32,570 nucleotides of DNA from Verrucomicrobiia bacterium (GCA_035629175.1 DASPIL010000043.1:1-32570); one strand, 5' to 3'. Shown: positions 27,192-32,570, counted from the first letter of the stretch. Made by a program: numbers and translations. The notes: generated by a model from the letters alone, not told the origin.

Positions 27192-28544
27192 TTGTCGAGC
27201 TCTGAAATTAAAGAGGATTTCATCTGGCTCAACCACAACCTCGGAGCCAATTTCTTCCTCACGAACTCATTGTTGGTTGCGATGACGAACACGGGGACGC
27301 ACACGGGGCTTGCCAACACGTTCACAACCGATCTCTCGGCGCAATTGAAGAAGAAGACAACATATCCACCCCTGATCTATTCCAATCTAACGCTTGCGGT
27401 GGAAACAACATTCAGCCCGCAGGCGCAACGAGATTTCGATGTTCCGGATCGTGGCTTTCACTACGACGCGCTGGACTATGCGTTCGGCGGGCTGAATGCC
27501 GGGACCAATGTGGTTTTCACCGCCGGAACGGCGATTGGATGGTTTGAGCTTCCGGGTTCGAGCGGCCCGGGATACGGGTTGTCGTTGCCCAACGATGTCA
27601 CGGCGATGTTCACAGGAACTGCGACATTACCCTGTGTTTTTGCTCGATACTCAACCGTTCAGGAGGGAGTAAACGGACATTGGAAAGACAAGGGCTGGCT
27701 GGCTGGGATTCGCAGCACGGGCACAATGATCACCAATCGGCCGTCGCGAGTTGTTGCCCAGTTTCTTCACAGCTATCTGCCCGCTGGCGGGCCCTGTCAT
27801 TTCCGGGACTACAACAATATGCTCCGCGTGACCGCAAACCACTCCGAGTTTTACGTTGGGAACCTGGGTGGTTACAATACGCAGAGTTCTTACACGAACT
27901 GCCTGTTTGATCGGATCTACCTTGTGAATAACACGAGCGTGTCCACAGCGTGGTTTATTCTTCGCAACACTACCCATTACGGCGGATGGATCGATTTTGG
28001 GCACTCAGAGTCAGGGCCGCCCTATTGGTTCTCCAGCATTGTCGATTGTGCCTTCGATGGGACGGCGATCACAATGGGCAATCCGTCTGGAGGGAATCCG
28101 CTTTATGTGTTTAATGATTTTAACGCGTATTTAGTTGGATCTAATAACACAATTCCAGCGGGTCCGAATGACATTAATGTCGGTAGTTTTGGGTGGATGA
28201 GTGGTTGGTCCCGGCCCGGGAGGTTCTTCTTGCCGTGGACCACCTCTCCGCTGGTCGATGGAGGAAGCACGACCGCAGATCAACGCGGGCTATTTCATTT
28301 CACAACTTCCCCTTCTGATGGGATGAAGGAGGAAGATTCGCAGGTGGATATTGGCTACCACTATGTCGCGGTGGACTGGCCCGATATACCGATGGATGAA
28401 GACCAGGACGGCACTCCTGATTACATCGAGGACGCTAATGGTAATGGCATTCTGGATAGCGGCGAAGCGCGATGGGATGATGCGAGCGATTCGGGACTGA
28501 GAGTCTGGATCACGCGGCCGACCTCCGGTTCGATCGTCCCCTGA
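27192..28544 (+). CDS. Beta-helix-like surface protein, N-terminus apparently missing
   Basis: The open frame (450 aa from a TTG; open since 27183) has no ATG start with a signal peptide and no ribosome site, although its content is that of an exported protein. Repeated strand-turn units with many Asn, Gly and Thr (TNCLFDRIYLVNNTSVSTAW, WFSSIVDCAFDGTAI) suggest a beta-helix. The C-terminus has VDIGYHYVAVDWPD and a calcium-binding thrombospondin-3/dockerin-like motif, DEDQDGTPDYIEDANGNGIL. I recall this tail as commonly preceding RHS genes in Verrucomicrobiota. Because coding content begins abruptly after repeat-rich DNA, I infer a 5' deletion; an internal start at ATG 27282 is possible but also lacks a signal. 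It ends 24 bases before the RHS gene. Confidence 0.6.
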   Translation: MSSSEIKEDFIWLNHNLGANFFLTNSLLVAMTNTGTHTGLANTFTTDLSAQLKKKTTYPPLIYSNLTLAVETTFSPQAQRDFDVPDRGFHYDALDYAFGGLNAGTNVVFTAGTAIGWFELPGSSGPGYGLSLPNDVTAMFTGTATLPCVFARYSTVQEGVNGHWKDKGWLAGIRSTGTMITNRPSRVVAQFLHSYLPAGGPCHFRDYNNMLRVTANHSEFYVGNLGGYNTQSSYTNCLFDRIYLVNNTSVSTAWFILRNTTHYGGWIDFGHSESGPPYWFSSIVDCAFDGTAITMGNPSGGNPLYVFNDFNAYLVGSNNTIPAGPNDINVGSFGWMSGWSRPGRFFLPWTTSPLVDGGSTTADQRGLFHFTTSPSDGMKEEDSQVDIGYHYVAVDWPDIPMDEDQDGTPDYIEDANGNGILDSGEARWDDASDSGLRVWITRPTSGSIVP

Positions 28545-28568: not shown

Positions 28569-31500
28569 ATGAAATTTCAGGCAAACATTCTTCAGGCCAT
28601 CGTGGCAATGCTTCTTGTGTGCGATGGCAATATTTCTTTCTGTGCGGAGGTGCCCAATTCATTGGATGAAGTGGAAACCACGTTGCGTCAAGCACCGCTC
28701 TTCAAGGAACCCCTGATTTGGGTCGGCTCGGAGCGTCCACCAGAATCTCAGACGCGTGCTCTGTATGAGATTGCTGCTGTTGAAGCCTGGAATGATAACG
28801 CTTCGGCCGACGAAAAAGTCTCCCGGTTCGAGAGCTTTATTGCGCAATATCCCGATTCTGCGTGGAATCCCGCGTTGCTGGCAAATCTTGGGGTGTATTA
28901 CCGTTCAGAAGGGAGGTACACCAAAGCATTGGAGCGCTGGTCCGAAGCGTGGCGTCGCACAGCGAACTTGACTGATTACAGGAGCCGGCATGTGGCTGCG
29001 TTCACCGCGGCCTATTGGTCACAGCTATTATCGAGTTTAGGCCGCATCGACGACATGGAAGCGTTGCTTGCTGTCGTTAAAACCGATGTCACTGCAAAAT
29101 CATTGTTTGCAAAGGAAATCGAAGCTGCCAATCGATCTTTGGCGATCATGAAGAATCAACCTGCCGCCGCCTTCCGATGTGGAACATTTGCGCTATTCCA
29201 CGCCGCGCAGGCGTTCGGCGAAGCTTCGAAATGTCAGTCACTGCTGTCGCTCAATTCGCCTCGATCAGGTTTCTCTCTCCAAAATTTGGTGGAGTTTTCG
29301 GCGAATTACCAACTCGGATTCGCCGCCGTTCATCGCGGTTCAGGAGGCGAACTGATCGTCCCCTCGGTCGTTCATTGGAAGGAGAATCACTATGCCGCCA
29401 TAGTGGAGAAGCGGCGAGGGGCGTACAAGGTCATTGACCCGACGTTTGGCGGATCAAAATGGTTGAGCGCTGCGGTCATTAATGAGAATGCGAGTGGCTA
29501 TTTCTTGATCCAATCTGGCGACCATCCGGCCTCGTGGCGAAGCGTCGATCCGGATGAGGCATCGACGGTTTTCGGCAAGGGAATCGAGAATAACGGTGAG
29601 CCAAATCCATCCGGATGCCCTTGTGGGACATGTCCTCCTCCATGCGCGCCAGGCTCTCCGGGATCCGGAAACGGAGGCAACGGGCCGGGCAGCTGCGGTT
29701 CCGCATGCGGCGTGAGGGTTGGGGCCGCAAAGGCAGGAATGCCCGATTGGGAAGTTCAAGAGCCATATATTTCACTTTGGCTGCACGATCGGCCGATGTT
29801 CTACGATCTCAGCCTCGGCGGGCAGTTTGCTCTCGATATGACCTACCACCAACGAGAAACGCGAGCTGCCCCGGGTTCCTGGAACACAAACGTTTTCAAC
29901 TTCGGGCCGAGTTGGAACTGCAACCTCCTCACTTATATTCTTGTGAAGGGGACAGTCACGCACGATCAGGAAACAGTCGACTGTGACCCGGAATCAGAAA
30001 GTGAATGCTGCACTCAAGCAGTGGTTACAGGCAATATAGAGCTCTCCGAATTCGCCCCGAAAGGCGGTCTTCGACGACACGTTTGGGATGGAGAACTCGC
30101 TCCCTGGTTGCGCGACACCAGGACACACGCACAGTTAAAACCGGTCGGGTATGACACCGTAACAACCCTCCCTTCTGCCTGTGGATACTCGTACGACCAA
30201 CGCGTGGTTCACTTCAAGACAGCTACTTTGGATTATCCTGATGGAAGCACGGCGGCATTCGGTTTGGTCGTTACAACGAGCACTCTTCCCGAAGAGAAGC
30301 TTGCATTTATCACCTCACTCACCAACCCGCAGGGGCAGGTAATGCGTTACCACTATTATACAAACGTCAGTGTTCCGAATAAACCGATAGTTCGGCTGGC
30401 GCACGTGGTGGATTTCGATGGAAATACAAACAGCTTCCTCTATGAAGATGCAAATTTCTCCAGCGCCGTAACAGCTATCACCAACGCCAACTATAAGCTG
30501 GGGGTGGCATTTCGTTATGATACGAACGGATTTTTGACGAACATCGTGGACACAATCGGACTGGCGAGTTCTTTCCAATATACATTTACCAATGATCTGT
30601 TCTTCCAAGGCTACAATACCAACGGTCAGCCCGGGAACCCGGATCAGTACGGCGGGTTTACGGAGCCGCCCCATACCAATCAGGTTTGGCTTTTGACTCG
30701 GATGAGTACTCCCTACGGAGACACGTCATTCGAATACATTCATCCGACCTGGCGAATGTTTACGCCTTCGAGCGCCCCTTCAGTGGAGGCTGAGATCAAC
30801 CGGGCGATTCGGGTCACACAGCCCGATGGTGGAACACACCTCTTCATGTACCTGGACAGGCATAATCCAATGGTCACTGGCCCATATCTGTACCCGACGC
30901 TTTGCGGGTCGGAAGGTAGCGATTATTTGGAGAACTACCTCGTTTTCAAGCAAAGAACGTCGAAGCATGCGGACATTCACCTGGTGGATTTCAATTCCTA
31001 CTATTGGGGTCCTCGGCAGTATGCCCGATTAAGCACAACGGTGATAACCAATTTCAATTACACCGACTATCGGGGCGCTCGTGTCCGCAACTGGCTTCAC
31101 TCGAATCCAGATGTAAATGATTTCAGCACTTCGCAAACGTTGAATGCGGAGCAAGCGCCAAGTCCAGACCCGGAGAACTCAGTGTCGAGCCAATCAATTT
31201 GGTACGGATACGAAGGCAAACCCGCGGACGCGGATATTGTCGAGAGCCAGAGCGATAACATTCCGGTCACCGTTGGATACCAAACAGACGATTTTGCCAT
31301 TCGAATTCAAAATTCGTGGCGCAACACGCAAGGACTTGTCACCAAGACCGTCGATTTTGGTTCTGATGTTTCTTGTGAACACTTCATTAAGACGAACCTC
31401 TATGTGTACGCGGCAAATGGGATTGATCTGGTGAAACATATTGGGCCGGGGAATTTGATGTTGGGTGGCTATGCCTACAATGCCTTTCACCAAATTACGT

Positions 31501-32570
31501 TCGCAACCAATGCACTCGGAGAAGTGACGTCGTACACCTATGTTTCGAACCGGCTCACCAGCACCAAACTCCCAAGCGGATTGATCACCACGAACATCTA
31601 TGGCGCGAACGGGTTTATAGCAGTCACCTACGATTACGCTGTGGTCGCCGGAACACCTGTTTACTATCGGACCAACGCGTACACCTACACCAATGGCCTT
31701 GTTTTCACGCATACCGACGAACGCGGACTGACGGTTACAAATACGTGGGACAAACTGCAGCGCCTCCTGAGCGTCAAGTATTCCGATGGACGATCCATTT
31801 CCTACACGTATGACAAGCTCGACCTCGTGCGGATTGTCGATCGGATGGGATTCACCAACTCCTTTGTTTACGACAACATGCAGCGCAAAATCTTCGAGAC
31901 GAATGCGCTCGGGCGCGTGACAGCCTATAGCTATTGCACATGCGGGTCTCTGAATTCGGTCCAGGACGCGGCAGGACAGAATACGTTCTTCTACTATGAC
32001 AACCTGGGGCGTCTGACCAACACCCTGTTTGCCGACGGATTCAGCATCCGGCGCGAATACGACCTCGCATCACAGATCCGCCGAACGATTGACAGCTCCG
32101 GTCACACGGTGATTAAGACTTATGACGGAGAGGGAAATTTGCAGGCGGTGGACAAGGACCACCCGATCGGGCCTCAAAGAACGGCGCAGTTCAGCTATGA
32201 CATCTATGATCGGGTCACGACGAACATCAATGCGGAAGGGGTGAAGGTGACGATGACCTACGATCCCCTGGGACGGTTGCGAACGCGGACGTATCCGGAC
32301 AACGGAGTTGAGAGCTTTGGCTATACACTGAACGTTTCAGGAGCGACCAGCTACACCAACCAGCTCAACCAGGTGACCCGTTACGTTTACGATCCGCTGG
32401 AGCGAAAGACGGCTGAAACGAACGCCAACCTGGAAGTGACGCGGTTTGTCTATAACGGCGCCGGGGACCTGCTGACATTGACCGATGGCAAGAATCAAAC
32501 GACGGCATGGAAGTACGATTCCTTTGGACGCGTGACGAACAAGCTCGATCATTTGGGGACGAACCTCTTC
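28569..32570 (+). CDS. Secreted C39-peptidase/RHS (YD-repeat) protein, incomplete at the window edge
   Basis: The frame is open from ATG 28569 to the right edge: 1334 codons without a stop. A signal peptide (about 1-26, ILQAIVAMLLVCDGNISFCA) is followed by TPR-like helices (SAWNPALLANLGVYYRSEGR, YTKALERWSEAWRRT). A C39-like cysteine-peptidase domain is next, with candidate triad Cys204 (FRCGTFALFHA), His274 (ENHYAAIVE) and Asp290 (YKVIDPTFGG). A Cys/Gly/Pro-rich linker (about 350-382) leads into the RHS part, which begins like other family members (MTYHQRET, NFGPSWNCNLLTYI) and contains YD repeats such as YDNLGRLTNT, YDPLGRLRTR and YNGAGDLLTLTDG. RHS proteins form large shells around toxic or adhesive C-termini; the C-terminus here lies outside the window, so no toxin can be claimed. 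Confidence 0.9.
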   Translation, partial: MKFQANILQAIVAMLLVCDGNISFCAEVPNSLDEVETTLRQAPLFKEPLIWVGSERPPESQTRALYEIAAVEAWNDNASADEKVSRFESFIAQYPDSAWNPALLANLGVYYRSEGRYTKALERWSEAWRRTANLTDYRSRHVAAFTAAYWSQLLSSLGRIDDMEALLAVVKTDVTAKSLFAKEIEAANRSLAIMKNQPAAAFRCGTFALFHAAQAFGEASKCQSLLSLNSPRSGFSLQNLVEFSANYQLGFAAVHRGSGGELIVPSVVHWKENHYAAIVEKRRGAYKVIDPTFGGSKWLSAAVINENASGYFLIQSGDHPASWRSVDPDEASTVFGKGIENNGEPNPSGCPCGTCPPPCAPGSPGSGNGGNGPGSCGSACGVRVGAAKAGMPDWEVQEPYISLWLHDRPMFYDLSLGGQFALDMTYHQRETRAAPGSWNTNVFNFGPSWNCNLLTYILVKGTVTHDQETVDCDPESESECCTQAVVTGNIELSEFAPKGGLRRHVWDGELAPWLRDTRTHAQLKPVGYDTVTTLPSACGYSYDQRVVHFKTATLDYPDGSTAAFGLVVTTSTLPEEKLAFITSLTNPQGQVMRYHYYTNVSVPNKPIVRLAHVVDFDGNTNSFLYEDANFSSAVTAITNANYKLGVAFRYDTNGFLTNIVDTIGLASSFQYTFTNDLFFQGYNTNGQPGNPDQYGGFTEPPHTNQVWLLTRMSTPYGDTSFEYIHPTWRMFTPSSAPSVEAEINRAIRVTQPDGGTHLFMYLDRHNPMVTGPYLYPTLCGSEGSDYLENYLVFKQRTSKHADIHLVDFNSYYWGPRQYARLSTTVITNFNYTDYRGARVRNWLHSNPDVNDFSTSQTLNAEQAPSPDPENSVSSQSIWYGYEGKPADADIVESQSDNIPVTVGYQTDDFAIRIQNSWRNTQGLVTKTVDFGSDVSCEHFIKTNLYVYAANGIDLVKHIGPGNLMLGGYAYNAFHQITFATNALGEVTSYTYVSNRLTSTKLPSGLITTNIYGANGFIAVTYDYAVVAGTPVYYRTNAYTYTNGLVFTHTDERGLTVTNTWDKLQRLLSVKYSDGRSISYTYDKLDLVRIVDRMGFTNSFVYDNMQRKIFETNALGRVTAYSYCTCGSLNSVQDAAGQNTFFYYDNLGRLTNTLFADGFSIRREYDLASQIRRTIDSSGHTVIKTYDGEGNLQAVDKDHPIGPQRTAQFSYDIYDRVTTNINAEGVKVTMTYDPLGRLRTRTYPDNGVESFGYTLNVSGATSYTNQLNQVTRYVYDPLERKTAETNANLEVTRFVYNGAGDLLTLTDGKNQTTAWKYDSFGRVTNKLDHLGTNLF

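What the first reader, a model, noticed from the sequence alone, without database searches (positions are those of the whole stretch)
28569..32570. C39-type cysteine peptidase built into the N-terminus of an RHS protein
Candidate Cys204, His274 and Asp290 lie in C39-like order ahead of a Cys/Gly/Pro linker and a long YD-repeat region. C39 peptidases normally cut leader peptides at double-glycine sites during export, so in an RHS protein this domain could act in self-processing or in release of the C-terminal cargo. The adjacent beta-helix gene with a calcium-binding tail may be its surface partner.
Basis: partly seen in the sequence, partly recalled or inferred. Interest (0 to 1): 0.6.

Follow-up and report, generated by a model that had tools for sequence, protein, structure and literature searches.

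The report
Cysteine peptidase fused to RHS protein
A secreted bacterial RHS 'cocoon' protein really does carry a C39-type cysteine peptidase near its start; it belongs to a widespread but unstudied family in which this enzyme may make the front-end cut that other RHS proteins make by themselves.

Summary
The ORF at 28569-32570 (open at the contig end) has a signal-peptide-like start, a TPR-like helical domain, a C39 domain (PF03412, 30 bits, cut-off 22) with Cys204/His274/Asp290 placed as in C39 structures, a 51-residue Cys/Gly/Pro linker, and an RHS shell. AlphaFold2 (pLDDT 93.7) plus VIA-align match C39 peptidases (Z 12.8). Three paralogues in the genome and about 60 relatives in five phyla share the plan; the triad is essentially invariant. 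At least one public record already names an 'Rhs ... peptidase C39-like' protein, but I found no study.

C-terminal cargo release is probably not the C39's job: relatives keep the RHS core Asp motif, and one ends in a HINT domain. The N-terminal cut is the better candidate. None of 24 members has DUF6531, the region of the D|PV...GE self-cleavage site of T6SS Rhs proteins; they carry D-x-P instead, just after the linker that follows C39. This is inference: no cleavage was observed, and the usual oxyanion Gln is replaced by Pro (50/56).

The upstream partner idea is supported as linkage (46% to the same neighbour in L019), but the window copy looks 5'-truncated. The window's tip is not in the assembly.

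The parts
28569..32570 (+). C39-RHS gene, 1334 codons, incomplete at its 3' end (contig end)
   Evidence: open frame; Pfam C39 + RHS_repeat
28569..28646 (+). Sec signal-peptide-like N-terminus, aa 1-26 (cut after FCA is a guess from sequence)
   Evidence: hydrophobic core MKFQANILQAIVAMLLVC; 12-residue hydrophobicity 2.77; no dedicated signal-peptide predictor was available
28743..29156 (+). TPR-like helical domain, aa 59-196
   Evidence: AF2 helices 29-166 of the model; VIA-align matches to TPR structures; weak TPR_2 hit
29160..29582 (+). C39-type peptidase domain with its conserved C-terminal extension ending GKG, aa 198-338
   Evidence: PF03412 aa 204-314; VIA-align Z 12.8 to 6mpz over model 170-288
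29178..29180 (+). codon of Cys204, predicted nucleophile
   Evidence: conserved 48/48; start of helix
29388..29390 (+). codon of His274
   Evidence: conserved 49/49
29436..29438 (+). codon of Asp290
   Evidence: conserved 49/49; Glu in L144
29583..29735 (+). hypervariable Cys/Gly/Pro linker, aa 339-389; candidate region of an N-terminal cut (inferred)
   Evidence: 34-78 aa and at least one Cys in 52/52 relatives
29736..32570 (+). RHS N-terminal plug and YD-repeat shell, aa 390-1334 (incomplete)
   Evidence: RHS_repeat; AF2 model, Foldseek E 1.9e-37 to T6SS Rhs core 8qja
29787..29795 (+). D407-R408-P409, the D-x-P motif at the place of the canonical D|PV...GE N-terminal site
   Evidence: D-x-P in 56 of 62 C39-RHS proteins; DUF6531 in 0 of 24
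27192..28544 (+). upstream neighbour, probably a 5'-truncated copy of a large RHS-operon partner protein
   Evidence: 46% to the ORF upstream of C39-RHS in L019; inner part of the 1375-aa paralogue on C72

Best explanation
The gene encodes an exported RHS cocoon protein whose N-terminal delivery/processing module is a TPR-like domain plus a C39-type cysteine peptidase. Shown here: domain order, fold, triad conservation, the RHS shell, and absence of the canonical DUF6531 / D|PV...GE site. Inferred: after Sec export the C39 domain cuts, in cis or between neighbouring copies, in the Cys/Gly/Pro linker between itself and the RHS N-terminal plug, freeing the shell from its N-terminal module. It would replace the N-terminal self-cleavage of T6SS Rhs proteins, while the C-terminal Asp protease of the RHS core (or HINT) handles the tip.
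For: Pfam and fold identify C39. C/H/D invariant across five phyla. No stand-alone form found: YD repeats follow C39 in every complete, unbroken member; those without are cut by a contig end or look frameshifted or truncated, which favours action in cis. DUF6531 in 0/24 C39-RHS but over the cut-off in 5 of 7 RHS proteins without C39 in the same genome. D-x-P in 56/62 directly after a hypervariable linker. The N-terminal cut of Rhs proteins is known, and D288N abolishes it in Rhs1 (PMC8636562); its mechanism in TseI is described as unclear (PMC7170923). The C-terminal RHS motif is retained in at least 39 of 43. A Sec-exported C39 peptidase that works in the periplasm, with unknown target, is known: FapD (PMC5557850).
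Against: No cleavage has been seen. The oxyanion Gln (-6) is Pro in 50 of 56 and never Gln, so peptidase activity may be weak or absent, although CvaB Q26A and Q26N keep most secretion activity (PMC3335142). No conserved cut site was found in the linker. Two of the seven RHS proteins without C39 also lack a significant DUF6531 (L155, L162). D-x-P may be only a divergent plug. The C39 domain could act on the operon partner or on another target.
Confidence: 0.4

Rival explanations
1. The C39 domain acts in trans on the secreted operon partner (the large Ig/beta-helix-type protein, the small YD-stub protein, or the upstream gene), maturing or attaching it.
For: Partners are tightly linked: a YD-stub + Ig protein directly downstream in most of the large Verrucomicrobia clade, a 95-115 aa YD-stub protein upstream in alphaproteobacteria, and a conserved upstream gene in the window's clade.
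Against: The same kinds of partner occur beside RHS genes that lack C39: L152 has a neighbour with two YD motifs, and C72 and C62 have the upstream partner. Partner type varies while the C39 domain is constant.
Confidence: 0.2
2. The domain is a catalytically weak or inactive C39-like domain used as a docking/chaperone module, as in some type 1 secretion transporters.
For: Pro replaces the oxyanion Gln in 50/56; the inactive C39-like domain 3zua is among the fold matches (Z 10.5).
Against: C, H and D are all invariant, whereas a pure docking domain would be expected to lose them.
Confidence: 0.2
3. The C39 domain releases the C-terminal cargo.
For: It is in the same polypeptide as the cargo.
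Against: RHS core Asp motif retained in at least 39 of 43; a PT-HINT domain in L141; the C39 domain lies at the opposite end of a closed shell; several tips are short and K/P-rich rather than toxin-like.
Confidence: 0.07
4. The thiol enzyme acts on an outside target (peptidoglycan stem peptides or a neighbour's surface protein), or joins proteins like a transglutaminase.
For: Papain-like folds do this elsewhere; the pseudomurein endoisopeptidase PeiR (8z4h) is a fold match (Z 10.3).
Against: Always at the N-terminus of RHS proteins, with no lectin or wall-binding domain detected next to it.
Confidence: 0.1

Closest known systems
C39 peptidase domains of PCAT/ComA/CvaB transporters (PF03412; 6mpz, 5xe8)
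   Same: fold (Z 12.4-12.8), Cys-His-Asp order, His-to-Asp spacing of 16 as in CvaB (His105, Asp121)
   Different: no ABC transporter; exported rather than cytosolic (inferred from the signal peptide); oxyanion Gln replaced by Pro; no conserved double-glycine site
FapD, periplasmic C39 peptidase of the Fap amyloid system (PMC5557850)
   Same: C39 peptidase with a Sec signal peptide, not fused to a transporter
   Different: FapD is a separate protein, not joined to an RHS shell; its target is also unknown
T6SS Rhs effectors Rhs1, TseI, RhsA, Tse15
   Same: RHS beta-shell (Foldseek E down to 1.9e-37), C-terminal DPxGL-type motif, variable tip
   Different: TPR-C39 with a signal peptide instead of a PAAR/VgrG-binding N-terminus; no DUF6531 / D|PV...GE N-terminal site
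Tox-PL-C39 domains of polymorphic toxins (PMC3482391)
   Same: C39-related papain-like domain in RHS-type proteins
   Different: described there as toxin domains; here the domain is N-terminal and constant while the tip varies
Annotated 'Rhs repeat-associated core/peptidase C39-like domain-containing protein', Rhizobium etli AJC83316.1
   Same: same architecture; a direct relative (28% over the query)
   Different: only an automatic name; no study found

Membership tests
C39 peptidase family (PF03412) | profile match above the curated cut-off | tested here: met
   30 bits, cut-off 22
C39 peptidase family (PF03412) | papain-like C39 fold | tested here: met
   pLDDT 93.7; VIA-align Z 12.8 to 6mpz, rmsd 2.9 over 117 residues; 12.6 to 5xe8
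C39 peptidase family (PF03412) | Cys-His-Asp triad | tested here: met
   48/48, 49/49, 49/49
C39 peptidase family (PF03412) | oxyanion Gln six residues before Cys | tested here: not met
   Pro in 50/56, Gln in 0/56
C39 peptidase family (PF03412) | fusion to an ABC transporter (typical, not universal: FapD) | tested here: not met
   fused to RHS instead
C39 peptidase family (PF03412) | cleavage at a double-glycine site | not testable with these tools
   no biochemistry; GG present in only 28/52 linkers
RHS/YD-repeat proteins | RHS repeats and beta-shell fold | tested here: met
   Foldseek E 1.9e-37
RHS/YD-repeat proteins | C-terminal core with DPxGL-type Asp motif | tested here: inconclusive
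   beyond the contig end in the window; present in paralogues C29 and C98 and in most relatives
RHS proteins with DUF6531-type N-terminal self-cleavage | DUF6531 / D|PV...GE | tested here: not met
   0 of 24 members incl. the window; D-x-P instead
RHS polymorphic toxin with immunity gene | toxin tip followed by an immunity gene | tested here: inconclusive
   not visible in the window; relatives show PT-HINT (L141), Peptidase_M91 (one of 31 tips; L040 by its HELGH motif), a sub-cut-off DUF7674 neighbour (L019)
Tox-PL-C39 toxin domains | C39 domain as the C-terminal, variable toxin tip | tested here: not met
   the domain is N-terminal and constant

The most novel reading that the evidence does not exclude
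A widespread, Sec-exported kind of RHS system in which a dedicated cysteine peptidase has taken over the N-terminal release step of the RHS shell, with operon partners that start with a lone YD-repeat stub able to dock onto the shell.
Probability: 0.25. Interest if true: 0.7.

Novelty: new variant of a known kind. Interest (0 to 1): 0.5.

Why it matters
How the N-terminal cut of RHS proteins is made is stated to be unclear (PMC7170923). Here is a family in which a recognisable peptidase sits exactly before that place and the canonical site is missing, so the question becomes testable with one Cys mutant. It would also be another C39 peptidase working outside the cytoplasm, with a possibly different specificity, and would explain how RHS proteins without T6SS parts are processed after Sec export.

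Tried and rejected
Extending the gene beyond the contig: the RHS-core search of the genome gave no match on C43. Double-glycine site as a conserved cleavage motif: absent from 24 of 52 linkers. YD-stub partner as the specific C39 substrate: weakened, because an RHS without C39 (L152) has a similar neighbour. L018's upstream gene as homologue of the window's upstream gene: BLASTP found nothing significant. Papers: no text combining the C39 and RHS-core terms I used was found; the library holds open-licence papers only. PADLOC and PHROGs were not searched.

Full report
What is there. The window is the whole of contig C43 of a 5.4-Mb draft genome. The ORF at 28569-32570 has 1334 codons and is still open at the contig end. 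Its start looks like a Sec signal peptide (judged by eye and hydrophobicity). Pfam finds Peptidase_C39 at aa 204-314 (30 bits, cut-off 22), RHS repeats (90 bits) and a sub-cut-off TPR hit.

Fold. AlphaFold2 on aa 31-345 with 40 relatives gave pLDDT 93.7 and pTM 0.90. Model positions 174, 244 and 260 (Cys204, His274, Asp290) lie at a helix start, a strand start and a strand end, the papain-like layout. Foldseek's only matches below 0.001 are three chains of the PCAT C39 peptidase 6mpz. VIA-align gives Z 12.8 (rmsd 2.9, 117 residues) for 6mpz and 12.6 for ComA; a papain-like toxin (12.4) and a CdiA-CT toxin (11.7) follow within about one unit, so the general papain-like class is certain and C39 is the best supported member. 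The helical part matches TPR structures. A profile of the domain searched against PDB sequences returned only C39 peptidases, weakly (best E 0.014). The rest (aa 390-1334) folds as an RHS shell, Foldseek E 1.9e-37 to a T6SS Rhs core.

A family. Three paralogues lie on C76, C98 and C29 of the same genome, 38-42% identical over the C39 region. A pattern scan of species genomes gave 45 loci in Verrucomicrobiota, Pseudomonadota, Myxococcota, Acidobacteriota and Candidatus Melainabacteria. A profile search of 288 genomes of the window's phylum gave 20 with a match at 1e-5, seven of them strong. Plasmid relatives are annotated as RHS core proteins, one as 'Rhs repeat-associated core/peptidase C39-like', so the fusion has been named automatically. 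In the tree the window protein groups with C76, L018, L019 and L022 (100/100), apart from the large Verrucomicrobia clade that holds C29 and C98.

Conservation. Cys, His and Asp are present in 48/48, 49/49 and 49/49 sequences of the first set, and in 11/11, 11/11 and 10/11 of the profile-found neighbours (Glu once). Cys was part of one of the two search patterns; His274 and Asp290 were not. One C39 feature is missing: six residues before Cys stands Pro in 50 of 56 and Gln in none. The VIA-align ranges agree (the match to ComA starts at model 169 and chain residue 12, just after the Gln position), which places Pro198 at the Gln position; the ComA numbering of Gln and Cys there is from memory. 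In CvaB, Q26A and Q26N had only minimal effect (PMC3335142), so this weakens but does not remove the case for activity.

What it may do. T6SS Rhs proteins cut themselves twice. The C-terminal cut uses an Asp protease in the core. The N-terminal cut lies at the start of the N-terminal plug, before PV...GE, and needs Asp288 in Rhs1 (PMC8636562) or two Glu in TseI, where the mechanism is called unclear (PMC7170923). In the C39-RHS family the C-terminal motif is kept (at least 39 of 43), but DUF6531, which in the paralogues begins with that PV...GE signature, is found in 0 of 24 members. In its place 56 of 62 have D-x-P, right after a linker of 34-78 residues that always holds a Cys and directly follows C39. 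In the same genome, five of seven RHS proteins without C39 have DUF6531 over the cut-off; the other two are L155 (below) and L162 (none). I therefore propose that C39 makes the N-terminal cut. That step is inference.

Cargo and partners. Tips vary. Pfam found PT-HINT in L141 and one Peptidase_M91 among 31 tips, which the HELGH motif assigns to Dyella L040. L018 has a sub-cut-off ADP-ribosyl cyclase match. Many Verrucomicrobia tips are short and K/P-rich. Whether the window protein is a toxin is unknown. Neighbours: in the large Verrucomicrobia clade a secreted 870-1830 aa protein follows within about 80 bases, beginning after its signal peptide with a single YD-like motif and an Ig domain. In this genome, matches covering that whole start occur only beside C29 and C98. 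In several alphaproteobacteria a small two-YD protein precedes the gene. A similar neighbour stands beside an RHS without C39 (L152), so the stub goes with RHS, not with C39. The window's own upstream ORF matches the ORF upstream of C39-RHS in L019 (46%); its intact paralogues on C72 and C62 precede RHS genes. The window copy corresponds to an inner part of the C72 protein and has no obvious signal peptide, so it is probably truncated.

Verdict. A real, conserved, largely unstudied domain fusion: a new variant of RHS proteins.

Noticed in passing
L009:11103-14216, L010:11266-15249 and about 15 more loci, downstream of C39-RHS: Large secreted partner proteins whose mature start is a lone YD-repeat motif (e.g. 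SQFAFDANGNL) followed by an Ig domain; the stub might dock onto the RHS shell.
   Followed up: partly
L093:7448-7789, L094:7546-7830, L092, L058, L060, L061 upstream of C39-RHS: Small (about 95-115 aa) secreted proteins made of two YD motifs and, in several, a Trp-rich end (WGxGxWGCFxW) in alphaproteobacteria.
   Followed up: partly
window 27192-28544; L161:8202-12326; L162:1828-4809: Family of large proteins directly upstream of RHS genes; the window copy looks 5'-truncated. L018's upstream protein shows a similar PHHR... start by eye, but BLASTP with the window ORF found nothing.
   Followed up: partly
window linker 29583-29735 (aa 339-389) and relatives: Every one of 52 linkers contains at least one Cys, often just before the plug; a disulphide with the catalytic Cys as a safety lock is conceivable.
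   Followed up: no
window RHS shell (YSYCTCGSLNSV) and relatives: Conserved CxCG motif inside the RHS repeats of this family (consensus WCxCGxLxSLTDP).
   Followed up: no
L147, L148, L149, L150, L151: A divergent second group of TPR-C39-RHS proteins (C39 score up to 55.6 bits) with a 1220-1282 aa upstream partner where the contig shows it.
   Followed up: partly
L045, L047, L052, L028: Members that look frameshifted or truncated after C39; RHS sequence follows in another frame in L045, L047 and L052.
   Followed up: partly
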